Of a stretch of DNA of 64,000 nt, positions 23,579 to 36,350 are shown in pieces. Numbering within the stretch: position 1 is the stretch's first letter; each line of letters opens with the position of its first letter. This stretch comes from Micromonospora cathayae (GTDB taxonomy: Bacteria > Actinomycetota > Actinomycetes > Mycobacteriales > Micromonosporaceae): the NCBI RefSeq assembly GCF_028993575.1, contig NZ_CP118615.1, forward strand, positions 3,224,001-3,288,000. The letters run 5' to 3'. The notes under the pieces were generated by a model, which saw only the letters and a list, made by a program, of their open reading frames with translations, was not told where the DNA came from and searched no databases. The translations under genes were made by a program, and so were the position numbers.

Positions 23579-24107
23579 GCCGGTCCGCCTCGCCGGTCAC
23601 GACGGGCTCCCGGTCGGCGGGACGCGTGGCGTCCCGGGCGGCCAGCAGCGCCTCCGCCAGGCGTACCGGGTGTCGCGTGCTGACCACCCAGAACGGTGTC
23701 GGGTCGGCCGGGTCGTCGAGCAGCACCTGCACCGCGCCCCCCACCCAGGGCCGCTGCACCACGAAGGCGAGCGGATCGGCTGCGACACCCAGGACCTCGC
23801 GCCGCCCCTCGGCGTCCAGCGGCACCACGTCCGCGACGAACCGCACCGGCAGCCGGGCGTCGTCGACCCGCAGTTCGCCGTCGGTGACCGCGATCCGGAT
23901 CCGCCCCAGCCACCACAGCCCGGCCACGGTCAGCGGCAGCAGGACGGCGAACGGCAGCCAGGCGCGTACCCCGTCGCCGCCCATCCAGATCTCGACGGCG
24001 AGCAGCGCGCCGACCGCGATCCCGCCCAGCCAGAGCCACCACGGCAGGGTGAGCCGTTCGGTGAAGCCGCCGGGCGGGGCGGGCGGGGAGGAAGGTGAGT
24101 CGTGCAC
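23562..24107 (-). CDS. DUF3093 membrane protein
   Basis: 181 residues. Pro-rich start, then two membrane segments (about residues 22-40 and 50-67) and a C-terminal soluble domain ([21 protein letters not shown] onward). DUF3093, function unknown. GTG 24107 has TACCCT exactly 6 nt upstream, a leaderless promoter, and is divergent from dut. In mycobacteria the same neighbour pair is kept. Confidence 0.85.
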
Positions 24108-24157
24108 AGTCCGAGGGTACGGCGCGCCGCGCCCCGTCGACCCGGCAGGATGGCAGG

Positions 24158-24209
24158 GTCAGGCGGAGTGCCGCGACCGGAGGACGTCGTCAGGCGGAGT
24201 GCCGCGACC
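24158..24209. repeat. 21-bp perfect direct repeat in dut leader
   Basis: Copies at 24158-24178 and 24189-24209 separated by 10 bp, 34 bp before the dut start. Core AGGCGGAGTGCCGCGACC. Confidence 0.8.
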
Positions 24210-24242
24210 TGGACCTGCCGGATCCGGAGGAAGAGGGAGACC

Positions 24243-24752
24243 GTGACCGACCCCGTACCCGTGCCCGTACGACAGCTCGACCCGGGGCTGCCGCTGCCGG
24301 CGTACGCCCATCCCGGCGACGCCGGGGCCGACCTGATGGCGGCCGTGGACGTCGAGCTTCCCCCCGGCGGCCGGGCCCTGGTGCCCACCGGGATCGCCGT
24401 GGCGCTGCCCGAGGGGTACGTCGGACTGGTGCACCCGCGGTCCGGTCTCGCCGCCCGGCTCGGCGTGACGGTGCTCAACGCGCCCGGTACGGTCGACGCC
24501 GGCTACCGGGGTGAGATCATGGTCAACCTGATCAACCATGATCGGGTGAGTCCGGCCAAGATCTCCCGTGGCGACCGGATCGCGCAGCTCGTCGTGCAGC
24601 GGGTGGCACGGGCCGATTTCCGGCCGGTGGCCGAGCTGCCCGGGTCCCGGCGCGGGGCCGGCGGGCACGGCTCGACCGGTGGACACGCCGGTCTCGGGTC
24701 GCCGCCGGTCGGCGAACGGGTGCGCGACCAGACGGAAGAGGTGGCAGGGTGA
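24243..24752 (+). CDS. dut: dUTP diphosphatase
   Basis: 169 residues. All trimeric-dUTPase motifs: motif 1 DAGADLMAA, motif 2 HPRSGLAAR, motif 3 [11 protein letters not shown] with the catalytic Asp, motif 4 GDRIAQLVV, and motif 5 [11 protein letters not shown] (a variant of GSGGFGSTG with His for Phe). It hydrolyses dUTP to dUMP, keeping uracil out of DNA and supplying thymidylate synthesis. GTG 24243 follows GGAGGAAGAGGGAG. The C-terminal tail after motif 5 is about 20 residues longer than usual. Followed at 25 bp by DUF3710. Confidence 0.95.
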
Positions 24753-24777
24753 GTGCGAACAGCGGAGGGTGGGCACA

Positions 24778-25467
24778 GTGATCTTCTCCCGTAAGCGGGA
24801 CGGTTCCGGACGTCACGCGCGTGACGAGCGGGTGGGCGAACCGGTCACCGGGTCGGACACCGAGGAGTCGACGCCGAGCGCCCCGGACCGCGGCCCGTAC
24901 GACATCTCGGAGGCCCCGCGCGACGTGCAGCGGCTCGACCTGGGCAGCCTGCACATCCCGGCGGTGCCGGAGGTGGAGGTGCGGGTGCAGGCCGATCCGC
25001 AGGGCGTGGTCCAGCAGGTCGTGCTCGTGCACGGGGAGAACGCGCTCCAGCTCGGGGTGTTCGCCGCGCCGCGCAGCGAGGGCATCTGGGACGAGGTCCG
25101 CGAGGAGATCCGGCAGTCGTTGTTCAACGACGGCGCCGCCGCCCAGGAGGTCTCCGGCGAGTACGGTACCGAGCTGCGGGCCCGGGTACGCACCCCGGAG
25201 GGCATCACCGACCTGCGTTTCATCGGCGTGGACGGGCCGCGGTGGATGGTCCGGGGCGTCTACCAGGGGGCGGCGGCCACCGAACCGGCGGCGGCCGGTC
25301 CGCTCGCCGAGTGTCTCAGTGGCCTGGTGGTCGACCGGGGTCAGGAGGCCAAGCCGGTGCGTGAGCCGCTGCCGCTGCGGCTGCCCCGTGAGGTCGCCGC
25401 GCAGCAGCAGGCGCAGGCCGCCGCGGCCGGCGGCGACGCTCCGGCCCCCGGGCCGCGCCAGCCCTGA
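24778..25467 (+). CDS. DUF3710 protein
   Basis: 229 residues, GTG 24778 after GGAGGG. VIFSRKR opening, disordered acidic linker, then the DUF3710 core (PYDISEAP, RLDLGSLHIPAVP, GIWDEVREEI, RWMVRGVYQG). Gln/Ala-rich tail. Function unknown; linked to dut in actinobacteria. The stop lies inside the first copy of a 28-bp tandem duplication. Confidence 0.87.
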   Translation: MIFSRKRDGSGRHARDERVGEPVTGSDTEESTPSAPDRGPYDISEAPRDVQRLDLGSLHIPAVPEVEVRVQADPQGVVQQVVLVHGENALQLGVFAAPRSEGIWDEVREEIRQSLFNDGAAAQEVSGEYGTELRARVRTPEGITDLRFIGVDGPRWMVRGVYQGAAATEPAAAGPLAECLSGLVVDRGQEAKPVREPLPLRLPREVAAQQQAQAAAAGGDAPAPGPRQP

Positions 25468-25510
25468 CCGTGGCCCCGGGCCGCGCCAGCCCTGACCGTG
25501 GCCCCGGGCC
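25447..25510. repeat. 28-bp tandem duplication across the DUF3710 stop
   Basis: Two perfect 28-bp units (25447-25474, 25475-25502) plus 8 bp of a third. The first unit holds the DUF3710 TGA. The perfect identity suggests a recent event. The rest of the spacer to 25718 shows no gene. Confidence 0.9.
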
Positions 25511-25718
25511 GTCCCGGCGACCGGGACGGGGGGCGGTGAGGTCGGCCCGGTCCCGGCAGCCGGTGGCCGGGCCGGGACGCCCGGACCGTCCGTGGAACCA
25601 ACCGGCCCGCCGGAGAGCCCGTCCGATCGGCGTACGCTGACGTACGGGCCCGGCGGTGCCGGGCCACCGGACGCCGGCGCAGTGCCGGCCAGCGTGGAGG
25701 GGTGACGCGGAGGTCATG

Positions 25719-26096
25719 GTGACCGACGAACGCCGGGTGTCGCTGCGACGTCTGCTGCAACGGCTCACCGCCAGCGAGGCCGAGATCGAGGCGCAGGAGC
25801 TGCGCCGGGAGAGCGCCCAGTGCGGCGGCATCCCGGCCCGGCAGTGCCAGCGCGGTCAGGTCGTTTCGGTGTCCGGCCGGTTGCGTACCGTGGTCTACAC
25901 TCCCCGGACGAACCTGCCGACGCTGGAGGCCGACCTGTACGACGGCAGCGACGTGGTGACCCTGGTCTGGCTGGGCCGCCGGCACATCGTCGGCATCGAA
26001 CCGGGCCGGCACCTCACCGCGCGGGGGCGGGTGGCGGTGCGGGACGACCGTAAAGTCATCTACAACCCGTACTACGAGCTCGAGCCGCCACGGTGA
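25719..26096 (+). CDS. OB-fold nucleic-acid-binding domain protein
   Basis: 125 residues. Helical start TDERRVSLRRLLQRLTASEAEIEAQELRR, then an OB fold (QVVSVSGRLRTVVYT, LEADLYDGSDVVTLVWLG, LTARGRVAVRDDRKVIYNPYYEL). GTG 25719 is preferred to ATG 25716 because GGAGG is then 5 nt away. It resembles RecG/aaRS-type OB domains and may bind RNA or single-stranded DNA. Its stop overlaps the GTG of DUF3159 by 4 bp. Confidence 0.82.
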   Translation: MTDERRVSLRRLLQRLTASEAEIEAQELRRESAQCGGIPARQCQRGQVVSVSGRLRTVVYTPRTNLPTLEADLYDGSDVVTLVWLGRRHIVGIEPGRHLTARGRVAVRDDRKVIYNPYYELEPPR

Positions 26097-26809
26097 CGGG
26101 CCCCCGAGCGGAAGACGTGCCGATGACCACTGGACAGCACCGGTCCGCCCCGCCGCAGCCGACCGACCCGGACGGCGAGGAGCGGCTGCCGACCCTGGCC
26201 GAGCAGATGGCCGACCAGCTCGGCGGCTGGCGCGGCCTGGTCGAGTCCAGCGTGCCGGTGATGGTCTTCGTGATCGCCAACATCGTCAGCGACCTGCGTC
26301 CGGCGATCATCGCCTCGGTGGGGGTCGCGCTGCTGATCGCGGTGCTGCGGCTGGCCCAGCGCCGGCCGGTCCGGCACGCGCTCAACGGTCTGTTCGGCAT
26401 CGCCATCGGCGCGGCGATCGCCTGGCGTACCGGCGACGAGAAGACCTTCTACCTGCCCGGCATCCTGTACGGCATCGCGTACGGGCTGGTGCTGCTCGGC
26501 TCGGCGGTGATCCGGCAGCCCCTGGTCGGCTGGATCTGGTCGGTGCTGGCCGCCGGCGGCAAGTCGGAGTGGCGGCGGGACCCGAAGCTGGTGCGGACCT
26601 TCACCTGGCTGACCGCGCTGTGGGGCGTGGTCTGGCTGGCGAAGGTGGGGGTGCAGGCCGCGCTATACCTCGCCGACATGGACACCGCGCTGGGCATCGC
26701 CCGGCTGGCGCTCGGCTACCCGCCGTACGCGCTGCTGCTGCTGATCACGGTCTGGACGGTCCGCCGGGTGACCCGGCATTCCGCTCCCGCTCCCGCGCCC
26801 GGCGGCTGA
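26093..26809 (+). CDS. DUF3159 membrane protein
   Basis: 238 residues with about five membrane segments (for example SSVPVMVFVIANIVSDLRPA, FGIAIGAAIAW, PLVGWIWSVLAAGG). DUF3159, function unknown, conserved with dut and DUF3710. GTG 26093 overlaps the OB-fold gene stop (GTGA); a possible alternative is ATG 26123 with GGAAG upstream. Confidence 0.82.
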   Translation: MTGPRAEDVPMTTGQHRSAPPQPTDPDGEERLPTLAEQMADQLGGWRGLVESSVPVMVFVIANIVSDLRPAIIASVGVALLIAVLRLAQRRPVRHALNGLFGIAIGAAIAWRTGDEKTFYLPGILYGIAYGLVLLGSAVIRQPLVGWIWSVLAAGGKSEWRRDPKLVRTFTWLTALWGVVWLAKVGVQAALYLADMDTALGIARLALGYPPYALLLLITVWTVRRVTRHSAPAPAPGG

Positions 26810-26897
26810 GGCCGCGCCCGACGGTGCCCCGTGGGCCGGGCCGACCGGCGCGCACCGTCCGCCGGGCCATCTGACCCGGCCGTCGACCGTCACCCAG

Positions 26898-26986
26898 GCG
26901 GCCGGACGGGCAGCGGTCGCCGGACTCAGCGGCCGCCGGACCCGTAGCGGCCGGGCGGGCAGCCGTCGTGGGGCTCAGCCGCCGCT
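26898..26986. repeat. Imperfect 40-bp repeat at the ceoC 3' end
   Basis: 26898-26937 and 26947-26986 agree at about 33 of 40 positions (period 49). The second copy contains the ceoC stop codon, the first a displaced copy of it. Confidence 0.55.
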
Positions 26987-27664
26987 GCGGGTCCGCTCGA
27001 CGCTGTCCGCGCCGAGGACGACCGCCCGGACCGCGTCCTCCACCTCGGTGGTGCAGACGAAGACCAGCTCGTCGCCGGCCTCGATCGGGTCGTCCGCGCT
27101 GGGCACCAGGACCCGCTTGCCCCGGACGATCGCCACCAGCGCGCTGTCCCGGGGCAGCGGCACGTCCCGCAGCGGCTGACCGACGTACGGGGCGGCCGGC
27201 GGCAGGGTGATCTCGACCAGGTTGGCCTCGCCCTGCCGGAAGGTCATCAGCCGGACCAGGTCACCGACGGTGACCGCCTCCTCGACCAGGGCGGCCATCA
27301 CCCGCGGCTTGCTGACCGCGACGTCGACGCCCCACTGCTCGGTGAAGAGCCACTCGTTCTCCGCCCGGTTGACCCGGGCGACCACCCGGGGCACCGCGAA
27401 CTCGGTCTTGGCGAGCAGCGACACCACCAGGTTGACCTTGTCGTCGCCGGTGGCCGCGACCACCACGTCGCAGCCGGCGACGTCCGCCTCCTCCAGGCTG
27501 CTCAGCTCGCAGGCGTCCGCCAGCACCCAGTCCGCGCCCGGCACCCGGTCCGGGCGGAGCATCCGGGGCTGCCGCTCGATGAGCATCACCTGGTGCCCGT
27601 TGTCGATCAGCTCCTGGGCGATCGACCGGCCCACGTTGCCGGCCCCGGCGATGGCGATCCGCAT
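26975..27664 (-). CDS. ceoC: RCK / TrkA-family potassium regulatory protein (CeoC-like)
   Basis: 229 residues. N-terminal NAD-binding RCK domain with GAGNVGRSIAQELIDNGH (residues 7-24), then a TrkA-C ligand-binding domain (about 140-220). Such cytosolic proteins assemble as rings and gate potassium carriers in response to NAD(H), ATP/ADP or cyclic di-AMP. The ATG follows GGAGGG and lies 2 bp after the stop of the upstream RCK gene, so the two are co-translated and probably form heteromers. No TrkH/KtrB membrane subunit is nearby; the divergent neighbour is a KimA-type carrier. Confidence 0.88.
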   Translation of the reverse strand: MRIAIAGAGNVGRSIAQELIDNGHQVMLIERQPRMLRPDRVPGADWVLADACELSSLEEADVAGCDVVVAATGDDKVNLVVSLLAKTEFAVPRVVARVNRAENEWLFTEQWGVDVAVSKPRVMAALVEEAVTVGDLVRLMTFRQGEANLVEITLPPAAPYVGQPLRDVPLPRDSALVAIVRGKRVLVPSADDPIEAGDELVFVCTTEVEDAVRAVVLGADSVERTRSGG

Positions 27665-27666
27665 GC

Positions 27667-28332
27667 TCAGTGCCCTCCTTCGGGCGGGGCCACGGCGGTC
27701 GCCGTGACCGCCGTCGCGATGTCGTCGGTGACCAGCATGAAGAGCTGGTCACCCTCCTGCACCACGGTGGAGGCGGTGGGCAGGGTGCCGATGCCGAAGC
27801 GGATCAGGTACGCCGTCCGCGCGCCGGTCGCCTCCTCCAGCATGCGCAGCGGTCGACCGATCCAGTCCCGGTGGGTCGGCACCTCGATGATGGACACCGT
27901 GCTGGTCGGGTCGCGGAAGATCTCCACGTTCCCCTCGGGGACCAGGTGGCGCAGCATCCGGTCCGCCGTCCAGCGCACGGTGGCGACGGTGGGGATGCCG
28001 AGGCGCTCGTACACCTGGGCGCGGCGCTGGTCGTAGATCCGGGCGGCCACCCGGGACACCCCGAACGTCTCCCGGGCCAGCCGGGCCGAGATGATGTTGG
28101 AGTTGTCGCCGCTGGAGACCGCCGCGAAGGCGTCCGCCCGCTCGATGCCGGCCTCCCGCAGGACGGCGCCGTCGAAGCCGGCCCCGGTGACGGTGAGCCC
28201 GGCGAAGTCCGGGCTGAGCCGGCGGAAGGCGTCCCCGTCCTGGTCGATGACCGCCACCGAGTGCCCGCGGGCCTCCAGGTTGTGCGCCAGGGTCGAACCG
28301 ACCCGGCCACAACCCATGATCACGACATGCAC
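27667..28332 (-). CDS. ceoB: RCK / TrkA-family potassium regulatory protein (CeoB-like)
   Basis: 221 residues. NAD-binding motif VHVVIMGCGRVGSTLAHNLE with Asp-containing second strand AVIDQDGDAF, then TrkA-C (about 140-215). GTG 28332 is chosen because GGGAGGG is 5 nt upstream; the longer frame to 28452 is unsupported. In M. tuberculosis CeoB and CeoC are linked to potassium uptake. First gene of a two-gene operon, divergent from the transporter gene across 161 bp. Confidence 0.88.
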   Translation of the reverse strand: MHVVIMGCGRVGSTLAHNLEARGHSVAVIDQDGDAFRRLSPDFAGLTVTGAGFDGAVLREAGIERADAFAAVSSGDNSNIISARLARETFGVSRVAARIYDQRRAQVYERLGIPTVATVRWTADRMLRHLVPEGNVEIFRDPTSTVSIIEVPTHRDWIGRPLRMLEEATGARTAYLIRFGIGTLPTASTVVQEGDQLFMLVTDDIATAVTATAVAPPEGGH

Positions 28333-28479
28333 GGTGTCCCTCCCAAGGTCACCCGCCCGCCCTGCCGGGCCTGTCGTCTGCGAGCCTGCCACGTCCGACC
28401 GGCGCGACGCGGACCGACGGTACCTCCGGGACGCCCGGCGTCGGGCGGGCACCCCCCGGCCGCCCCACCGGGCTGGTCG

Positions 28480-28485
28480 TACGCT
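28480..28485 (+). promoter_or_regulatory. -10 element of the KimA-like gene
   Basis: TACGCT ends 8 nt before GTG 28494, giving an almost leaderless transcript. The remaining divergent spacer (28333-28479) shows no riboswitch-like fold that I can recognise. Confidence 0.55.
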
Positions 28486-28493
28486 TACCCGTT

Positions 28494-30575
28494 GTGGCCA
28501 GTCCCACCGCGCTGCTGAAGCGGCTCCTCGTCGGTCGACCGTTCCGGTCCGACCGGCTCCAGCACACCCTGCTGCCGAAGCGCATCGCCCTGCCGGTGTT
28601 CGCCTCGGACGCCCTCTCCAGCGTCGCGTACGCGCCGGACGAGATCCTGCTGACCCTCTCCATCGCCGGCGCGTCGGCGTACCTCTTCTCGCCGTGGATC
28701 GCGCTCGCGGTGGTCGTGGTGATGCTCACCGTGGTCGCCAGCTACCGGCAGACCGTGCACGCGTACCCGTCCGGCGGCGGCGACTACGAGGTCGCCACGG
28801 TCAACCTCGGCCCCCGGTTCGGGATCGGGGTGGCCAGCGCGCTGCTGGTCGACTACGTGCTGACGGTCGCGGTGTCGGTCTCCTCCGGGGTGGCGAACCT
28901 GGGCTCGGTGATCCCCTTCGTCGCCACCCACAAGGTGCTCATCGCGGTCACCGCGGTGGTCGTGCTCACCGCGATCAACCTGCGTGGCCTGCGCGAGTCG
29001 GGGACCGCCTTCGCCATCCCCACGTACGGCTTCATCATCGTCATCGTCGGCATGATCCTCACCGGCCTGGCCCGGGTCTTCGTCTTCGGGCACGACCTGC
29101 GGGCGCCCAGCGCCGACCTGGAGATCGCCGCCGAGTGGAGCGACACGACCGGCTGGGCCATGGCGTTCCTGCTGCTGCGCAGCTTCTCCTCCGGCTGTGC
29201 GGCGCTGACCGGCGTGGAGGCGATCTCCAACGGGGTGCCCGCGTTCAAGCAGCCGAAGAGCCGCAACGCGGCCACCACCCTGCTGCTGCTCGGCACGGTC
29301 GCGGTCACCATGCTGGTCGGGATCATCTGGCTGGCCCGGCTGACCGGCCTCCAGTTCGTCGAGGACCCGGCCCGGCAGATCGTCTCCGGGCCCGAGGGGT
29401 ACGTCCAGAAGACCGTCACCGCGCAGCTCGGCGAGACCGTCTTCGGCTCCGGCTCGGTACTGCTGTTCCTGGTGGTGGGGGCGACCGCGCTGATCCTGTT
29501 CCTGGCCGCGAACACCGCCTTCAACGGCTTCCCGGTGCTCGGCTCGATCCTGGCGCAGGACCGCTTCCTGCCCCGGCAGCTGCACACCCGCGGCGACCGG
29601 CTGGCCTTCTCCAACGGCATCCTGTTCCTGGCGGTCTTCGCGATCGTGCTGATCGTCGGGTTCCAGGCCGAGGTGACGAAGCTCATCCAGCTCTACATCG
29701 TGGGGGTGTTCGTCTCGTTCACCCTCTCCCAGGCCGGCATGATCCGGCACTGGAACCGGCTGCTGCGTACCGAGCGGGACCCGCAGGCGCGCCGCCGGAT
29801 GGTCCGCTCCCGGGCGATCAACGGGTTCGGCATGGTGCTGACCGGCGCGGTGCTGGTCGTGGTGCTGATCACCAAGTTCCTGCTCGGCGCGTGGATCGCC
29901 ATCGCCGCGATGGCGGTGATCTACGCGTTGATGGTGGCCATCCGCCGGCACTACGACCGGGTCGCGGTGGAACTCACCCCGGACGAGGGCCGACCCGTGC
30001 TGCCCGCCCGCAACCACGCCGTCGTCCTGGTCAGCAAACTGCACCAGCCGACCCTGCGGGCGGTGGCGTACGCGCAGGCGACCCGGCCGGACTCGTTGAC
30101 CGCGGTGACGGTGAACGTGGACGACAAGGACACCCGCCAGCTCCAGGCCGAGTGGGAACGGCGGGCGGTGCCGGTGCCGTTGACCGTGATCGACTCCCCG
30201 TACCGGGAGATCACCCGGCCGATCCTGAACTTCGTCGCCTCGGTCCGCCGGGCCTCGCCCCGGGACGTGGTCACCGTGTTCATCCCGGAGTACGTGGTCG
30301 GCCGCTGGTGGGAGAACCTTTTGCACAACCAGAGCGCGCTGCGGCTGAAGACCAGGCTGCTGTTCGAGCCGGGGGTGATGGTGACCAGCGTGCCGTGGCA
30401 GCTCGCCTCGTCCCGGGGCAAGGACCTCACCCGGTACGACGAGACGCTCAGCCGGGGCCCGGCGCGCGGCCCCCGGGTGGCGCCCAGCAGCACCCTGCCG
30501 CCGACCGTCCCGCCGGTGCCGGCGGCCACCCCCGGCGAGGGCGGCCGGAACGCGACGGGGGCCGACGATGCGTGA
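28494..30575 (+). CDS. KimA-type APC-superfamily potassium/proton symporter
   Basis: 693 residues, about 12 membrane segments and a ~220-residue cytosolic C-terminal domain. Such genes are usually annotated as amino-acid permeases. From memory it aligns closely with Bacillus subtilis KimA (YdaO). The residues I recall as its potassium site are all present: Asp39 and Tyr46 (SDALSSVAY), Asp120 and Thr124 (LLVDYVLT), Thr239 and Glu242 (LTGVEAISN), Tyr401 (LYIVGVF). The C-terminal part (HAVVLVSKLHQPTLRAVAYA, NLLHNQSALRLKTRLLF) matches the domain that binds cyclic di-AMP in KimA. Divergent from two RCK proteins. Its stop overlaps the next gene by 8 bp. Potassium import rather than amino-acid transport is therefore inferred. 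Confidence 0.85.
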   Translation: MASPTALLKRLLVGRPFRSDRLQHTLLPKRIALPVFASDALSSVAYAPDEILLTLSIAGASAYLFSPWIALAVVVVMLTVVASYRQTVHAYPSGGGDYEVATVNLGPRFGIGVASALLVDYVLTVAVSVSSGVANLGSVIPFVATHKVLIAVTAVVVLTAINLRGLRESGTAFAIPTYGFIIVIVGMILTGLARVFVFGHDLRAPSADLEIAAEWSDTTGWAMAFLLLRSFSSGCAALTGVEAISNGVPAFKQPKSRNAATTLLLLGTVAVTMLVGIIWLARLTGLQFVEDPARQIVSGPEGYVQKTVTAQLGETVFGSGSVLLFLVVGATALILFLAANTAFNGFPVLGSILAQDRFLPRQLHTRGDRLAFSNGILFLAVFAIVLIVGFQAEVTKLIQLYIVGVFVSFTLSQAGMIRHWNRLLRTERDPQARRRMVRSRAINGFGMVLTGAVLVVVLITKFLLGAWIAIAAMAVIYALMVAIRRHYDRVAVELTPDEGRPVLPARNHAVVLVSKLHQPTLRAVAYAQATRPDSLTAVTVNVDDKDTRQLQAEWERRAVPVPLTVIDSPYREITRPILNFVASVRRASPRDVVTVFIPEYVVGRWWENLLHNQSALRLKTRLLFEPGVMVTSVPWQLASSRGKDLTRYDETLSRGPARGPRVAPSSTLPPTVPPVPAATPGEGGRNATGADDA

Positions 30576-31830
30576 CCTGGACGTCGTACCGGAGGGGGAT
30601 CGGGTGGAGCTGACCGAGGCCGAACGGGTCGAGCTGACCGTGGGGGCGGTGGCCCCCGGCGGGCACTGCGTGGCCCGGGTGGACGGGCAGGTGGTCTTCG
30701 TCCGGCACGCGCTCCCCGGCGAGCGGGTGCTGGCCGAGATCACCGAGGTGCACCGGGGTTTCCTGCGGGCCGACGCGGTGACGGTGCTCGAGGCCGCCCC
30801 GCAGCGCGTCGAGCCGCCCTGCCGGTACGCGAAACCGGGAAGCTGCGGCGGCTGTGACCTTCAACACGTCGCCCCGGCGGCGCAGCGGGAGTGGAAGGAA
30901 TCGGTGGTCAGGGAGCAGCTCACCCGGCTGGGTGGGCTCACCGACGCGCAGGTCGACGCGCTCGGCGTCACGGTGGAGGCGCTGCCCGGCGGGCCGCTGG
31001 GCTGGCGCTCCCGGGTCCGCTACGCGGTCGACGCCGCCGGCCGGGCCGGGCTGCTCAAACACCGCTCGCACGAGGTGGTGCCGATCGACCGCTGCCTGAT
31101 CGCCCATCCGGCGATCCAGGACCTGCCGGTGCTGTCCGCCGACGGCACCCGCTGGCCGGACGCCGACACGGTCGAGACGGTCGCCAGCACCGCCGGGGAC
31201 GTCACCGTCACCGGGTACGCCGACGGGGTCTCCACCCCGGTCAGCGGCCCCCGGGCGGTCCGCGAAACGGCCGCCGGCCGGGACTGGACGCTGCCCGCGT
31301 CCGGGTTCTGGCAGGTGCACCCGGCCGCGGCGGACACCCTGGTCGGCGCGGTCCTCGAGCTGCTCGACCCGCGCCCCGGCGAGACCGCCTGGGACCTGTA
31401 CGGCGGGGCCGGGCTGTTCGCCGCCGCGCTCGCCGGCCGGGTCGACGGGGCCCGGGTCACCCTGGTCGAAGCGGCTGCGGACGGGGTGGCCGCGGCCCGG
31501 GAGAACCTGGCCGACCTGCCCGCCGTCGAGGTGGTGGCGGCCCGGGTGGAGACCGCGCTGGCCCGCCGCCGGATCACCGGCCCGGTCGACCTGGTGGTGC
31601 TCGACCCGCCGCGCTCCGGCGCGGGGGCCCGGGTGGTGCACGGCCTGGTGGCCGCCGGCCCGCGCGCGGTGGCGTACGTGGCCTGCGACCCGGCCGCCTT
31701 CGCCCGGGACGTGCGGACGTTCGCGGCGGCGGGCTGGCGGCTGGCCGCGCTGCGCGGCTTCGACCTGTTCCCGATGACCCAGCACGTGGAACTGGTCGGG
31801 CTGCTGGTTCCGCCGTCCGGGGAGCGCTGA
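30568..31830 (+). CDS. TRAM-domain class I RNA methyltransferase (TrmA/RlmCD type)
   Basis: 420 residues. N-terminal TRAM RNA-binding domain (about residues 18-78), iron-sulfur cysteines (CRYAKPGSCGGCDLQHV with a fourth Cys in DRCLIAHP), SAM motif AWDLYGGAGLFAAALAG, catalytic region VLDPPRSGAG, the nucleophile Cys in YVACDPAAFARD and the general base Glu in TQHVELVGLL. It should make 5-methyluridine in 23S rRNA or tRNA; which site cannot be told. ATG 30568 lies 8 bp inside the transporter gene. Followed at 3 bp by anmK. Confidence 0.9.
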   Translation: MRDLDVVPEGDRVELTEAERVELTVGAVAPGGHCVARVDGQVVFVRHALPGERVLAEITEVHRGFLRADAVTVLEAAPQRVEPPCRYAKPGSCGGCDLQHVAPAAQREWKESVVREQLTRLGGLTDAQVDALGVTVEALPGGPLGWRSRVRYAVDAAGRAGLLKHRSHEVVPIDRCLIAHPAIQDLPVLSADGTRWPDADTVETVASTAGDVTVTGYADGVSTPVSGPRAVRETAAGRDWTLPASGFWQVHPAAADTLVGAVLELLDPRPGETAWDLYGGAGLFAAALAGRVDGARVTLVEAAADGVAAARENLADLPAVEVVAARVETALARRRITGPVDLVVLDPPRSGAGARVVHGLVAAGPRAVAYVACDPAAFARDVRTFAAAGWRLAALRGFDLFPMTQHVELVGLLVPPSGER

Positions 31831-31833
31831 GCC

Positions 31834-33054
31834 GTGCTGCGGATCGTCGGACTGATGTCGGGCACCTCGTACGACGGGGTGGACGTGGTCGCCGCCGGGT
31901 TCTCCCGGGCGGGGGAGACGCTGCTGCTGCACCCGCTCGGGCACCGTGAGCTGGCGTACCCGGACGACCTGCGGGCCGGGATCGGCGCGCTGCTGCCGCC
32001 GGCGGCCACCACCGTCGAGGCGGTCTGCCGGCTGGACAACCGGCTGGGGGACGTGTTCGCCGAGGCGGCGGCGGTCGGGGTCGAGCTGGCCGGCGGCCGG
32101 GCCGACCTGGTGGTCTCGCCGGGTCAGACGGTCTTCCACTGGGTCGAGGCGGGCCGGGCCCGGGGCACCCTGCAACTGGGCGCGCCGGCCCGGGTGGCCG
32201 CCCGGGTCGGCGTACCGGTGCTCACCGACCTGCGGGGCGCGGACATCGCCGCCGGGGGCCAGGGCGCGCCGCTGGTGCCGGCCTTCGACGCGCTGCTGCT
32301 CGCGGACGAATCGCCGGCCGGGGCGTCGCCCCGGGCGGCGCTGAACCTCGGCGGCATCGCCAACCTCACCGTGGTCTCGCCGGGCCGGCCCGTGCTCGGG
32401 TACGACATCGGCCCGGCCAACGCGCTGCTGGACGCGGCGGCCCGCCGGTTCCTCGACGCGCCCTGCGACGCGGGCGGGGTACGGGCGGCGGCCGGCCGGG
32501 TGCACCCCGGGCTGCTGGAACTGCTGCTGGCCGAGCCGTACTACGCCGCGCCGCCGCCCAAGTCGACCGGCAAGGAACTCTTCCACCCCGGCTACCTGGC
32601 CGACCGGCTCGCCGCGCTCGGCAGCCCGGTGCGCCCTGACGGGGGCGGCGACGACGGGGCTCTGTCCGCCGACGACGTGCTCGCCACGCTCACCGAGCTG
32701 ACCGCCCGGATCGTGGCCGCCGAGTGCGACCGGCACCGGGTCACCGAGGTCGTCGCGGCCGGCGGCGGGGTCCGCAACCCGACCCTGCTGGGCCGGCTCG
32801 CCGCCCTCGGCGCGGGGCGCTGGCGGCTGCGGGTCAGCGACGAGCTGGGGGTGCCGGCCCAGGCCAAGGAGGCGTACGCGTTCGCCCTGCTCGGCTGGCT
32901 CTCCTGGCACGGCCTGCCGGGGGCGGTGCCCTCGGTGACCGGTGCCCGGCGGGCCGCCGTGCTCGGCTCGTGGACGCCGTCCGGGCCGCCCGCCGGCACC
33001 GGCACCGGCCCGGCCCCGCGCCGGCTGCGGGTGGTCGGGACGTCCCGGCCCTGA
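31834..33054 (+). CDS. anmK: Anhydro-N-acetylmuramic acid kinase
   Basis: 406 residues, GTG start 3 bp after the RNA methyltransferase stop. ATP-binding [14 protein letters not shown], the catalytic Asp region [38 protein letters not shown] and the substrate motif KSTGKELF. AnmK opens and phosphorylates the 1,6-anhydro ring of anhMurNAc to MurNAc-6-phosphate, recycling peptidoglycan. The C-terminal 20 residues are a Pro/Gly-rich extension. Confidence 0.94.
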
Positions 33055-33125
33055 CCGGTGTGCCCGTGGGCGGATACGGAGCGTCGCCCGGTTTCGGCCC
33101 AGACTGCGGACTACGCGTCGGCCGA

Positions 33126-33131
33126 TAGACT
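33126..33131 (+). promoter_or_regulatory. -10 element of dxs
   Basis: TAGACT ends 8 nt before ATG 33140; no ribosome site is present, so dxs is probably read from a nearly leaderless mRNA. Confidence 0.55.
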
Positions 33132-33139
33132 CTTCGCTC

Positions 33140-35095
33140 ATGAGTGTTGAAGAGGACACGGCCAACCAGGGCCGGCTACTGGCCACGGTGCGCGGTCCGC
33201 AGGACGTCAAGCGGATGTCCGCCGAGGATCTGGACATCCTCGCCGCCGAGATCCGGGACTTCCTGATCGCCAAGGTCTCCCGGACCGGCGGCCACGTCGG
33301 ACCCAACCTCGGCGTGGTGGAGCTGACCATCGCCATGCACCGGGTCTTCGACTCCCCGCGCGACCGGCTCCTGTTCGACACCGGCCACCAGGCGTACGTG
33401 CACAAGATCCTCACCGGGCGGCAGGCCGGCTTCGACCGGCTGCGCCAGCGTGGTGGCCTGTCGGGCTACCCGAGCCAGGCCGAGAGCGAGCACGACCTGA
33501 TCGAGAACTCGCACGCCTCCACCGCCCTCTCCTACGCCGACGGCCTGGCCAAGGCGTACGCCCTGCGCGGCGAACAGCGCAGCGTGGTCGCCGTGGTCGG
33601 CGACGGCGCGCTGACCGGCGGCATGTGCTGGGAGGCGCTGAACAACATCGCCACCGCCGGCAACCCGCTGGTCATCGTGGTCAACGACAACGGCCGGTCG
33701 TACGCGCCGACCATCGGCGGTCTGGCCGACCACCTCTCGTCGCTGCGGCTCAACCCCGGCTACGAGAAGATCCTCGACACCGTCAAGGACGCCCTCGGCT
33801 CCACCCCGCTGGTCGGTAGGCCGATGTACGAGGTGCTGCACGCGGTCAAGAAGGGCATCAAGGACGCGGTGGCCCCGCAGGCGATGTTCGAGGACCTCGG
33901 CATCAAGTACGTCGGGCCGGTCGACGGGCACGACCGGGAGGCGGTCGAGTCGGCGCTGCGCGCGGCGAAGAACTTCGGCGGCCCGGTGATCGTGCACGCG
34001 GTCACCCGCAAGGGCTATGGTTACCGCCCCGCCGAGGAGGACGAGGCGGACTGCCTGCACGGCCCCGGTGGCGCGTTCGACGTGGAGACCGGCAAGCTGG
34101 TTGCCGCCCCCTCGGTGAAGTGGACGCACGTCTTCGCCGACGAGCTGGTCGCGATCGCCGACGAGCGCCCCGACGTGGTCGGCATCACCGCCGCGATGGC
34201 CGAGCCCACCGGCATCGCCAAGCTGGCCCGCAAGCACCCCGACCGGGTGTACGACGTGGGCATCGCCGAGCAGCACGCGGCCACCTCGGCCGCCGGCCTG
34301 GCGCTGGGCGGGCTGCACCCGGTGGTGGCGGTCTACGCGACCTTCCTCAACCGGGCCTTCGACCAGGTTCTGCTGGACGTGGCGATGCACCGGCTCCCGG
34401 TCACCTTCGTGCTGGACCGGGCCGGCGTCACCGGCCCGGACGGGCCGAGCCACTACGGCCTGTGGGACATGTCGGTCTTCGGGGTGGTGCCCGGCCTGCG
34501 GATCGCCGCGCCCCGGGACGCCGCCACGCTCCGCGAGGAGCTGCGCGAGGCGGTCGCCGTCGACGACGGCCCGACCATCGTCCGCTTCCCGACCGGTACG
34601 GTCGCCGCCGACCTGCCCGCCGTACGCCGGGTCGGCCCGGTGGACGTGCTGGCCGAGTCGACCAGCACCGACGTGCTGCTGGTCGCGGTCGGCTCCTTCG
34701 GCCAGCTCGGCATGGAGGTCGCGAGCCGGCTCGCCGAGCAGGGCTACGGAGTGACCGTGGTGGACCCGCGCTGGGTGCGCCCGGTGCCGGCCGAGCTGGT
34801 CGAGCTGGCCGCCGCGCACCGGCTCGTGGTCACCGTCGAGGACGGGGTCCGCACCGGTGGGGTCGGTACCGCGCTGGCCCAGGCGATGCGCGACGCCGAC
34901 GTCCGGGTTCCGCTGCGTGACCTCGGCGTACCGGCCGACTGGCACCCGCACGGCACCCGGGCGCAGATCCTGGCCGACCTCGGCCTGACCGCGCAGGACG
35001 TGGCCCGGGACGTCACCGGTTGGATCTCCCGGCTCGACTCGGAGACGGGCGAGCCGGTCCGGCTGCCCACCGGTGGGGCGGGCGCGCAGAACTGA
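33140..35095 (+). CDS. dxs: 1-deoxy-D-xylulose-5-phosphate synthase
   Basis: 651 residues. [29 protein letters not shown], the thiamine-diphosphate motif [38 protein letters not shown] and [15 protein letters not shown]. It condenses pyruvate and glyceraldehyde 3-phosphate, the first and flux-setting step of the MEP isoprenoid pathway (menaquinone, polyprenyl phosphates). ATG 33140 is set by the promoter 8 nt upstream and by family length; the longer open frame back into anmK is rejected. Confidence 0.96.
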
Positions 35096-35097
35096 GC

Positions 35098-35148
35098 GGC
35101 ATCCCACCCGGCCCGGCTGCCCTGAGCGGCCGGGCCGGGTGGGGTGCC
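35098..35148. terminator. Strong hairpin after dxs
   Basis: 20-bp stem with a single G-T pair (35098-35117 with 35129-35148), 11-nt loop, between convergent dxs and the lipoprotein gene. Confidence 0.8.
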
Positions 35149-35153
35149 CGCCG

Positions 35154-36350
35154 CTAGCGTCCGTTGACCGACCGGTAGTAGTTGCGCTCCGCGCCGGCCA
35201 GGATGAACGTCTGCTTCTCGGCCGCCTGCGGCACCACCACCAGCCCCGGGCGGTCCACCAGCCGCTGCGTGCCCGGCGGCGTGGACAGCGACGTGCCCTT
35301 GCTGGACCGCCAGCTCAGCACCACCAGCGGCTGACCGGGCACCGGCAGCACGTACGCCTGGAGCGGGTTGGCCCGGTCGGCGACCGAGACGGCGGTCGGC
35401 CCACCCTCGGCGGGCCGGTGCACCAGGGCGGTCAGCGTGCCGGCCTCGCTGACCCAGCTCAACTGCTTCAGCTCGGCCGGCGCACCCCCGCCGAGGGTGA
35501 TCTCGCCCAGCGTCTTCGCGGTGACCTGCTCCACCGGCCAGGAGCGGGGCACCGACTCCGGGGTGTCCCGGTCGCGTACCCGCCGGGGAACGCTGACGAA
35601 CGGGCCGTCCTCCCCGGCCAGCTGGCAGGTGTCCAGCCCGGCGAGGGCGCGTCGACCGGCTCCGGTCTCGTCCCGGACCAGCGGATAGCGGGGAGCCCGG
35701 GTGGCCGTACCCAGGTCGATCAGCGGGTCGGCGGCCCGGCCGCGCGGCAGCGACTCGGTGGCCCGCAGCGTCGCGGTCACCGCGACGGCGGCACAGGCCG
35801 GGACGGCGGCGACCGGCCCGGTCAGCCCGTCGGTGACGCTCAGCGGTCGCCCGTCCGGGCCGGCGAGCCGCGTCACCCGGGCGGAGGTCAGGTAGCGGCG
35901 CTCGTCGCCGAGCTGCACCGGCAGCACGTCCGCGTAGGCCAGGTAGCCCGGATCGGTGTACTCCACGGCCCGGGAGACCGTGAACCGGTCGCCCTCGCCG
36001 GTGAGCTGGAGCAACCAGGACGCGCTCTCGCCGGGGACGTCGGCGGCGACCAGCGCCAGCCGGGTCCCGCCGACCTCGCCGGACCAGAGGATGCCCGAGG
36101 TGGGCAGGTGGGCCCGGTCGTCGATCGGTGACCGCCAGTCGCGGACCGTCTCGGTGACCGCCGCCGTCACCTCGGCGTTCCCGGCCAGGCTGCCGCGTGG
36201 CGGCCAGACCTCGAGCGCACCGTCGAGACTGTCGTAACCGACCGGGAGGCGGGTCTCCTGCCGCTGCGCGACCGGCCCACAGCCGGCCGCCGTGACGGTC
36301 AGGGCCAGCAGCGCCGTGACCGTCCTGCCGCGCCAGCGGACTGAAGCCAC
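35154..36350 (-). CDS. Uncharacterised lipoprotein
   Basis: 398 residues from GTG 36350. Basic start then a hydrophobic stretch ending TVTAAGCGP, a lipobox-like site, so probably lipid-anchored outside the cell. The body is beta-rich with WSGEVGGTRLALVAAD, WLLQLTGEGDRFTV and TLTALVHRP, resembling a beta-propeller or repeated sandwich; no catalytic motif is recognised. ATG 36389 is an alternative start. Two internal Cys (VPACAAVAV and LDTCQLAG) may form a disulfide. Divergent from the first polytopic membrane protein gene across 178 bp. Confidence 0.75.
   Translation of the reverse strand: MASVRWRGRTVTALLALTVTAAGCGPVAQRQETRLPVGYDSLDGALEVWPPRGSLAGNAEVTAAVTETVRDWRSPIDDRAHLPTSGILWSGEVGGTRLALVAADVPGESASWLLQLTGEGDRFTVSRAVEYTDPGYLAYADVLPVQLGDERRYLTSARVTRLAGPDGRPLSVTDGLTGPVAAVPACAAVAVTATLRATESLPRGRAADPLIDLGTATRAPRYPLVRDETGAGRRALAGLDTCQLAGEDGPFVSVPRRVRDRDTPESVPRSWPVEQVTAKTLGEITLGGGAPAELKQLSWVSEAGTLTALVHRPAEGGPTAVSVADRANPLQAYVLPVPGQPLVVLSWRSSKGTSLSTPPGTQRLVDRPGLVVVPQAAEKQTFILAGAERNYYRSVNGR

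What the first reader, a model, noticed from the sequence alone, without database searches (positions are those of the whole stretch)
26975..30575. KimA-type potassium carrier divergent from two RCK proteins (CeoB/CeoC)
The gene at 28494-30575 would normally be called an amino-acid permease, but every residue I recall as forming the KimA potassium site is present (Asp39, Tyr46, Asp120, Thr124, Thr239, Glu242, Tyr401), as are the LTGVEAISN and NLLHNQSALRLK segments. The adjacent ceoB-ceoC pair encodes potassium-gating RCK proteins with no TrkH/KtrB partner in sight. The simplest hypothesis is that this carrier is the missing membrane partner: an APC-fold transporter controlled by RCK subunits, which is not the textbook Trk/Ktr arrangement.
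Basis: partly seen in the sequence, partly recalled or inferred. Interest (0 to 1): 0.7.

Follow-up and report, generated by a model that had tools for sequence, protein, structure and literature searches.

The report
Potassium symporter paired with Trk regulators
In this actinobacterium and most of its sampled relatives, a gene for a KimA-family protein, predicted to import potassium, stands back to back with two genes for regulators of the kind that elsewhere gate a different potassium channel (TrkH), so the regulators likely control this carrier and it would be the unrecognised membrane part of that 'Trk' system.

Summary
The divergent pair (26975-28332) is a two-subunit TrkA. The genome has one TrkH, 2.6 Mb away, with its own RCK gene.

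The link holds beyond this genome. Of 118 genomes of the class, 113 have the pair and 105 of these a KimA; in 90 they are neighbours, always divergent; no pair lies beside TrkH. Outside the class, RCK genes like the window's lie beside KimA 23 times, TrkH 0 times, neither 6 times; more distant ones lie beside TrkH 50 times, KimA once, neither 48 times. In one genome a distant KimA lineage fills the same slot. One published tuberculosis screen and one variant survey hit ceoB and the carrier together; two other screens list the carrier alone.

Against: 8 of 113 genomes have the pair but no KimA found; in 15 KimA lies elsewhere; no KimA residue tracks the link; physical gating is untested. Most likely: a KimA symporter gated by a two-subunit TrkA ring, a new variant of RCK-regulated potassium transport.

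The parts
26975..27664 (-). Distal RCK subunit (229 aa; TrkA second-half type; positional equivalent of ceoC)
   Evidence: TrkA_N 92.9 bits and TrkA_C 59 bits, both over cut-off; best PDB match covers TrkA residues 234-437; scores higher to TM1088B (86.0 bits) than TM1088A (42.2)
27667..28332 (-). Proximal RCK subunit (221 aa from GTG at 28332; TrkA first-half type; positional equivalent of ceoB)
   Evidence: TrkA_N 85.0 bits and TrkA_C 29.4 bits, both over cut-off (scanned from 28314); best PDB match covers TrkA residues 4-219; scores higher to TM1088A (90.6 bits) than TM1088B (59.5); GGGAG at 28340-28344 read on the - strand
28333..28493 (.). 161-bp intergenic region between the divergent genes; presumably holds both promoters (inferred)
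   Evidence: sequence; no Rfam match in 24000-36000
28494..30575 (+). KimA-family carrier, 693 aa, predicted K+/H+ symporter
   Evidence: only PDB match at E<=0.01 is KimA, E=5.4e-114; all seven named K+-site residues present
29976..30413 (+). Part of the carrier gene for the C-terminal cytosolic domain (about residues 495-640). Of nine residues reported around c-di-AMP in KimA eight are identical in the window protein: V540, H611, N612, Q613, S614 in this part, R361, V490, L494 before it; P479 of KimA is L512 here
   Evidence: alignment; contact residues from PMC10284832 passages
30568..31830 (+). RlmD/TrmA-like RNA methyltransferase, overlaps the end of the carrier gene by 8 bp; neighbour kept within the class, not found at the loci outside it
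   Evidence: TRAM and tRNA_U5-meth_tr; synteny
26093..26809 (+). DUF3159 membrane protein; neighbour kept within the class, not found at the loci outside it
   Evidence: PF11361 220.7 bits; synteny

Best explanation
Mechanism proposed: the proximal and distal RCK proteins would assemble into a ring like TM1088A/TM1088B of Thermotoga (predicted), bind a nucleotide at the GxGxxG sites kept in both (motif shown, ligand inferred), and dock on the cytosolic face of the KimA dimer to allow or stop K+ entry with the energy or redox state of the cell (inferred). The c-di-AMP pocket of the KimA cytosolic domain is also largely kept, so c-di-AMP would be a second, independent brake (predicted). Shown here: gene identities, site residues, conserved pairing across the phylum sample, separation of the KimA-linked RCK type from the TrkH-linked type. 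Not shown: complex formation, transport, gating, ligand.
For: Identity. Pairing in the class: 113 of 118 genomes have the distal RCK, 107 KimA, 105 both; 90 are neighbours and all 90 divergent; 0 of 116 RCK rows within 5 kb of TrkH. 74 of the 105 have no TrkH match, among them 9 of 9 sampled genomes of family f2, which holds Mycolicibacterium. Where TrkH exists, 17 of 20 fetched TrkH loci (of 52 TrkH rows over cut-off) carry their own KtrA-type RCK gene. Outside the class the outer neighbours RlmD, Dut, DUF3159, DUF3710 were not found, yet 22 of 35 KimA-bearing genomes keep the pair within 6 kb of KimA (20 within 1.5 kb), 19 divergent and 3 codirectional. Partner split outside the class: RCK hits of 170 bits or more: 23 KimA, 0 TrkH, 6 neither; weaker hits: 1 KimA (a truncated piece), 50 TrkH, 48 neither (Fisher p=2.9e-18 on the linked ones, relatedness not corrected); one change on the distal-RCK tree separates the two sides. 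In G155 a class-type RCK pair (265 and 288 bits) sits beside a KimA of a deep lineage, 35-37% identical to the window's, in the same slot between RlmD and the pair (L031): the slot seems to have been refilled with another KimA. Published: ceoB and adjacent Rv2690 mutants share a phenotype (PMC12216072, abstract and passages); both are enriched for within-host variants (PMC13308281, table passages).
Against: No direct evidence of binding or gating. 8 of 113 class genomes keep the pair with no KimA found; 7 of these 8 have TrkH, but in 4 of the 7 (G160, G191, G207, G215) the only TrkH found already has its own RCK; the eighth is cut by a contig end. 15 of 105 keep KimA away from the pair. 13 of 35 KimA-bearing genomes outside the class have no pair near the KimA loci fetched (some lie on short contigs). 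48 of 99 weaker RCK hits lie by neither partner. Within the class the pair also stays with RlmD, DUF3159 and Dut, so adjacency there is partly block synteny. No KimA position tracks the RCK link across deep clades (D97 does so only inside the class). 57 of 172 KimA rows, one of them B. subtilis, are solitary. KimA of B. subtilis was solved as a homodimer and restores growth of E. coli LB2003 when expressed from a plasmid (PMC6994465 passages). No KimA-RCK fusion among 175 KimA-matching frames. Two tuberculosis screens list Rv2690c while ceoB and ceoC do not occur in the text (PMC8805019, PMC10534295).
Confidence: 0.65

Rival explanations
1. The carrier is a KimA K+ importer regulated only by c-di-AMP, and the RCK pair gates something else (TrkH/KtrB where present, or a two-helix K+ channel); the genes are neighbours because they share a divergent promoter region in a conserved chromosome block.
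For: KimA of B. subtilis is inhibited by c-di-AMP and 8 of 9 pocket residues are kept; the block Dut-DUF3710-OB-DUF3159-RCK-RCK-KimA-RlmD is conserved within the class; 8 genomes keep the pair without a KimA match.
Against: Outside the class the block was not found but the pairing stays in 22 of 35 genomes; TrkH mostly has its own RCK (17 of 20 fetched loci); 74 of 105 genomes have no TrkH match; the slot was refilled by a distant KimA lineage in L031. Other K+ channels were not surveyed.
Confidence: 0.22
2. The RCK pair and KimA act in the same potassium pathway but by regulation of expression or by separate functions (for example redox or NAD sensing), without forming a complex.
For: Divergent rather than operon order in 90 of 90 class genomes fits shared regulation; ceoB and Rv2690 share a screen phenotype, which does not need a complex (PMC12216072).
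Against: The pair is homologous over most of its length to rings that dock on membrane partners (TrkA-TrkH 4j9u; TM1088A/B); in three genomes outside the class KimA and the pair are codirectional, so a shared divergent promoter is not what is kept.
Confidence: 0.1
3. The carrier is an amino-acid permease and the K+ reading is wrong.
For: Pfam calls PF13520 at 95 bits and sources name relatives 'APC family permease' or 'amino acid transporter'.
Against: Only KimA matches among PDB sequences at E<=0.01; D36, Y43, T121 and Y377 equivalents are invariant and D117, T230, E233 nearly so in 105 RCK-linked rows; the only NCBIfam match at E<=0.01 is 17 bits to an ethanolamine permease, far under its cut-off.
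Confidence: 0.03

Closest known systems
KimA of Bacillus subtilis (KUP family, LeuT/APC fold; PDB 6s3k, 8b70, 8b71)
   Same: Sequence over residues 8-636, the seven K+-site residues, proton-coupling Glu, C-terminal cytosolic domain; 8 of 9 residues reported around c-di-AMP
   Different: Solved as a homodimer without RCK subunits (PMC6994465, PMC10284832 passages); no Rfam match, so no ydaO riboswitch, in 24-36 kb here; here a divergent two-gene TrkA accompanies it
Two-subunit TrkA of Thermotoga maritima (TM1088A/TM1088B with TrkH TM1089; PMC4380455 passages)
   Same: Two separate RCK proteins matching the two halves of TrkA; the proximal one scores higher to TM1088A, the distal one to TM1088B. 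That paper already mentions two-subunit homologues in Actinobacteria and M. tuberculosis
   Different: Membrane partner there is TrkH; here TrkH is adjacent to the pair in none of 118 class genomes and the usual neighbour is KimA
CeoB-CeoC 'Trk' system of Mycobacterium tuberculosis (PMC4553272, PMC12136442, PMC13163235: passages; PMC6375644: term counts only)
   Same: By the Mycolicibacterium loci L192 and L193 the pair has KimA next to it in the window's gene order; Rv2690c is stated to be adjacent to ceoB. Rv2690c itself was not aligned here
   Different: PMC4553272 and PMC13163235 describe it as two TrkA proteins; TrkH has 0 hits in the four texts and Rv2690 0 hits in the three where it was asked
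KtrAB/TrkH with KtrA-type RCK
   Same: RCK gene beside a K+ membrane protein; present elsewhere in this genome
   Different: Different RCK type (172-213 bits to this genome's KtrA, at most 36 bits to the window pair in 17 of the 20 loci) and a channel-type membrane subunit
KhtTU / CpeA-CpeB (RCK_C-regulated K+/H+ antiporter; PMC10117811 passages)
   Same: Precedent that RCK-type subunits regulate a proton-coupled K+ carrier rather than a channel
   Different: Export antiporter with a single RCK_C subunit that binds c-di-AMP; the window pair lacks that RCK_C signature (0 of 119 distal and 0 of 116 proximal proteins)

Membership tests
KimA subfamily of KUP | Full-length sequence match to KimA | tested here: met
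   385 bits, E=5.4e-114, residues 8-636 of 693
KimA subfamily of KUP | K+-site and proton-coupling residues D36, Y43, D117, T121, T230, E233, Y377 | tested here: met
   All seven in the window; each in 103-105 of 105 RCK-linked rows
KimA subfamily of KUP | C-terminal cytosolic domain with the residues around c-di-AMP | tested here: met
   8 of 9 residues identical, P479 is Leu; binding itself not tested
KimA subfamily of KUP | Proton-coupled K+ uptake | not testable with these tools
   Needs a transport assay
KimA of B. subtilis type | Upstream c-di-AMP (ydaO) riboswitch (recalled for B. subtilis) | tested here: not met
   No Rfam match at gathering threshold in 24000-36000
Two-subunit TrkA (TM1088A/B type) | Two adjacent genes, each TrkA_N plus TrkA_C, matching first and second half of TrkA | tested here: met
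Two-subunit TrkA (TM1088A/B type) | Nucleotide-binding GxGxxG in both subunits | tested here: met
   Window: GAGNVG and GCGRVG; 117 of 119 distal and 115 of 116 proximal relatives
Two-subunit TrkA (TM1088A/B type) | Hetero-octameric ring | not testable with these tools
   No complex prediction offered
Trk/Ktr K+ uptake system | TrkH/KtrB membrane subunit encoded with the RCK genes | tested here: not met
   Single TrkH of the genome lies elsewhere with its own RCK; 0 of 116 RCK rows within 5 kb of TrkH in 118 class genomes
Amino-acid permease (APC) | Reaches the cut-off of an amino-acid permease equivalog, or matches a solved amino-acid transporter | tested here: not met
   NCBIfam: only 17 bits to an ethanolamine permease, cut-off 382; PDB: none but KimA at E<=0.01. 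The broad Pfam family PF13520 is met
RCK_C c-di-AMP receptor | (I/L)(I/L)X2DX1RX5N(I/L)(I/L) signature | tested here: not met
   0 of 119 distal, 0 of 116 proximal; signature from PMC10117811 passage

The most novel reading that the evidence does not exclude
CeoB-CeoC and its homologues are not a Trk channel system: they are the gating ring of a KimA symporter, the first LeuT/APC-fold carrier controlled by an RCK ring, and the missing membrane subunit of the actinobacterial, including mycobacterial, 'Trk' system is KimA. More widely, the two-subunit TrkA ring is an exchangeable control module that has been fitted to TrkH channels, KimA symporters and type II P-type ATPases in different branches of the same phylum.
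Probability: 0.5. Interest if true: 0.86.

Novelty: new variant of a known kind. Interest (0 to 1): 0.74.

Why it matters
RCK rings are known as gates of K+ channels and of some antiporters; a ring that controls a K+/H+ symporter of the LeuT/APC fold would be a new coupling (my knowledge, plus the passages read). It also gives a concrete answer to an open question: passages in two papers describe the tuberculosis 'Trk' system as two TrkA proteins, with no pore named (PMC4553272, PMC13163235). It would explain why ceoB and Rv2690c come up together in one published screen and one variant survey, and offers a candidate for the remaining K+ uptake of a strain lacking ceoBC and kdp (PMC13163235 passage; that paper suggests other proteins). 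In genomes without TrkH the prediction is sharp and testable in harmless laboratory strains.

Tried and rejected
Amino-acid permease reading: rejected. Fusion of KimA with an RCK domain as Rosetta stone: none among 175 KimA-matching frames (loci fetched later were not checked for this). Riboswitch: no Rfam match. c-di-AMP as ligand of the RCK pair: signature absent. A KimA residue that marks the RCK link: seven candidate positions inside the class, led by D97, but none holds across the deep clades. TrkH as the partner of the window pair: no adjacency in 118 genomes, and TrkH mostly has its own RCK (17 of 20 fetched loci).

The divergence of the distal RCK in KimA-less genomes was considered as evidence of co-evolution: in family f59 four KimA-less members score 170-223 bits against 306-321 bits in five members with the usual KimA, while RlmD and Dut of those four loci score no lower than in L094, the one f59 locus with KimA fetched from the survey. 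It rests on one family and a Mann-Whitney p of 0.02, three of the eight KimA-less genomes score normally (293-300 bits), and G172 (173 bits) has a distant partial KimA elsewhere, so it is only a hint. The TrkH excess in KimA-less genomes (7 of 8 against 31 of 105, Fisher p=0.002) is not corrected for relatedness.

Rows dropped before counts: one search used the 52 TrkH rows over cut-off (one row under it was left out). In one search I did not paste the rows of the class, three RCK rows of 76.8-77.6 bits (proximal partners of pairs already counted), KimA matches of G037, G048 and G124 (very weak), and second fragments of split TrkH or KimA matches; the list was itself cut at the bottom. The 170-bit line was drawn after seeing the data. 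In one search, 5 of the 40 KimA-matching genomes outside the class were left out: G037, G048, G124, one fragment (G051, whose fragment does lie beside the pair) and G133, whose 27%-identical carrier also lies beside the pair (L221). In one search most Streptomyces loci were thinned out and truncated RCK genes skipped. KimA rows with inner stops or under 1500 bp were left out of the tree.


Full report
WHAT IS THERE. The window comes from a 7.2-Mb single-contig Micromonospora genome (relatives; place). Reading leftwards from 28332 lie two RCK genes (27667-28332 and 26975-27664, - strand); reading rightwards from 28494 lies a 693-aa carrier. Both RCK proteins have TrkA_N and TrkA_C over cut-off. 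The carrier is PF13520 by Pfam but its only match among PDB sequences at E<=0.01 is KimA of B. subtilis, E=5.4e-114. PMC6994465 (passages) reports that changes of D36 or Y43 abolished uptake, that T121A and Y377A lowered apparent affinity while T230A was like wild type, that E233 is assigned to proton coupling and D117 is proposed to sense internal K+. Of nine residues described around c-di-AMP in KimA (PMC10284832 passages), eight are identical here.

WHAT THE RCK PAIR IS. Against the PDB, the proximal protein aligns best with the first half of Vibrio TrkA (4g65, residues 4-219), the distal one with the second half (4j9u, 234-437); the proximal one scores 90.6 bits to TM1088A and 59.5 to TM1088B, the distal one 42.2 and 86.0. 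So the pair is a two-subunit TrkA. In Thermotoga this type works with the TrkH protein TM1089 (PMC4380455 passages). Both window proteins keep GxGxxG; neither has the c-di-AMP signature of RCK_C domains. PMC10117811 reports that of six purified RCK_C domains of S. venezuelae two bound c-di-AMP and four, Vnz_27460 among them, did not (citing partly unpublished data; passages).

IS TRKH AVAILABLE? The genome has one TrkH at 650584-651816, followed at once by its own RCK gene. In the class survey of 118 genomes, TrkH occurs in 43; 0 of 116 RCK rows of the window type lie within 5 kb of it. Of 20 TrkH loci that I fetched (of 52 TrkH rows over cut-off), 17 have a KtrA-type RCK next door that scores 172-213 bits to this genome's KtrA and at most 36 bits to the window pair; three do not (L077, L079, L091).

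PAIRING IN THE CLASS. KimA at E<=1e-40 is in 107 of 118 genomes, the distal RCK at E<=1e-30 in 113, both in 105. In 90 they lie within 5 kb, always divergent, 719-1480 bp apart; in all the loci of this kind that I fetched (L092-L111, L192-L196, L231, L031) the proximal RCK fills the gap. In 15 more both exist but apart: ten small genomes of family f64 with a KimA 34-37% identical to the window's, four of f57, and G172. Eight have the pair without a KimA match; seven of them have TrkH, and in the eighth (G201) the contig ends inside the proximal RCK gene. At 13 of the 16 loci fetched where the pair lacks a neighbouring KimA, RlmD, the RCK pair, DUF3159 and Dut follow each other as if KimA had been cut out; G201 ends before RlmD, and L023 and L024 have extra sequence in between. 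Two genomes have KimA without the pair. 74 of the 105 have no TrkH match, including 9 of 9 genomes of f2; a carrier of an f2 genome is 99% identical to one of Mycolicibacterium pallens, and there (L192, L193) the order is RlmD, KimA, RCK pair, DUF3159, OB, DUF3710, Dut.

NAMED LOCI. Of 80 loci of named organisms found with a carrier 95% identical to that of Jiangella muralis, 50 have the pair within 1.5 kb and three more at 2-5 kb; of the other 27 some are cut by contig ends and most are a KimA without a detected pair, many in Streptomyces, also in Kitasatospora, Streptacidiphilus, Nocardia and Amycolatopsis. PMC10117811 already lists two KimA-like proteins in S. venezuelae (Vnz_27465, Vnz_15480), reports no TrkH there, and lists Vnz_27460 among RCK_C proteins; the passages read do not connect Vnz_27460 with Vnz_27465.

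OUTSIDE THE CLASS. Within the class, block synteny could keep any two genes together. Outside it the block was not found: around the 22 RCK-linked KimA loci no RlmD, Dut, DUF3159, DUF3710, Dxs or AnmK matched at E<=1e-5, only an OB-fold gene (15 matches). Yet 22 of 35 genomes keep the pair within 6 kb of KimA, 20 within 1.5 kb; 19 are divergent and three codirectional (L059, L061, L063), an operon-like order. The other 13 have no pair at the loci fetched. The converse survey is the sharpest result: of 29 RCK hits outside the class with 170 bits or more, 23 lie within 6 kb of KimA, 0 of TrkH, 6 of neither; of 99 weaker hits, 50 lie by TrkH, 1 by KimA (a truncated piece in G082), 48 by neither. 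All 29 genomes with the window-type RCK have a KimA match (in G051, G013 and G040 partial, in G133 27% identical at best); 5 have TrkH. On a tree of 97 distal subunits, the rows of the KimA side and those of the TrkH/ATPase side are separated by one change (branch support 99/73); on the proximal tree by two. The TrkH rows are the positive control: RCK neighbours do point to known partners.

REFILLED SLOT. In G155 (L031) the order RlmD, KimA, RCK, RCK, DUF3710, Dut is as usual and the RCK pair is class-typical (265 and 288 bits), but the KimA is 35-37% identical to the window's and falls in a deep clade with loci from outside the class and with extra KimA copies of class genomes (L197, L198, L204). 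A different KimA lineage thus occupies the slot beside the pair. On the KimA tree of 172 rows the RCK label needs 14 changes against 47.6 in shuffles, so RCK-linked KimAs are spread over old branches rather than one recent one; the quick tree has long branches and should be read with care.

LITERATURE. PMC4553272 and PMC13163235 (passages) describe the tuberculosis Trk system as two TrkA proteins; PMC12136442 (passages) calls ceoBC the Trk uptake system; of PMC6375644 only term counts were seen. TrkH has no hit in the four texts. [quoted passage not shown] PMC13308281 (a preprint; table passages) lists Rv2690c and ceoB among regions enriched for within-host variants. PMC11878324 (passages) shows Rv2690c and ceoC variants at 26% and 25% in one isolate. 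On the other side, PMC8805019 and PMC10534295 list Rv2690c as a screen hit with no mention of ceoB, ceoC or potassium, and PMC2864267 lists it alone. None of these passages names KimA. That Rv2690c is the KimA of this report rests on position and the Mycolicibacterium loci; I did not align Rv2690c itself. I found no paper that links KimA with an RCK ring in the listings, which cover open-licence PMC papers only and of which I opened a part.

HOW IT MOST LIKELY WORKS. Shown: identities, site residues, nucleotide motifs, pairing and partner split. Inferred: the two RCK proteins form a ring, sense a nucleotide, and gate the KimA dimer from the cytosol, in place of TrkH; c-di-AMP is a second brake on the KimA domain. 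Against: no physical evidence, eight genomes with the pair and no KimA match, of which four (G160, G191, G207, G215) offer no TrkH without its own RCK either, and no KimA residue that tracks the link.

NOVELTY. KimA and two-subunit TrkA are known kinds; their combination is, as far as the searches reach, not in print, hence a new variant. The four loci L248-L251, where an RCK pair follows a type II P-type cation ATPase, suggest that the ring is an exchangeable module; this was seen in passing in four loci chosen from the hits by neither partner.

Noticed in passing
L248 1315-5550, L251 507-4745, L249 4207-10590, L250 279-6846: In other classes of the phylum an RCK pair directly follows a 938-956 aa type II P-type cation ATPase (Cation_ATPase_N, E1-E2_ATPase, Cation_ATPase_C): a possible third membrane partner of the two-subunit TrkA ring. 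Seen in all four 'neither' loci fetched.
   Followed up: partly
L249, L250: Arrays with more RCK units: a pair, then a 470-487 aa frame (two TrkA_N stretches in the one scanned, L250), then another RCK gene.
   Followed up: no
L044, L052-L067, L070, L071: KimA frames outside the class of 755-946 aa match the cytosolic domain twice, i.e. seem to carry a doubled C-terminal domain.
   Followed up: no
L031 6270-8129: A deep-lineage KimA occupies the usual slot between RlmD and the RCK pair in a class genome, apparently a replacement in place.
   Followed up: partly
L123 1590-5714: In a Frankiaceae MAG, TrkH, a KtrA-type RCK and a KimA stand in a row on one strand, so a KimA may sit in a Ktr operon.
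   Followed up: no
L022 5974-6575: In a genome without a KimA match (G231) the proximal RCK gene appears in two overlapping frames, a frameshift or assembly error.
   Followed up: no
L028 6432-7088, L029 6074-6736: Two f2 genomes carry a second distal-type RCK gene (56% identical) with no KimA, TrkH or proximal RCK match in 14 kb.
   Followed up: no
L015-L018 and L197, L198: Small genomes (1.2-2.2 Mb, family f64) keep the RCK pair in the old block while a deep-lineage KimA (frames of about 780-800 aa) lies far away.
   Followed up: partly
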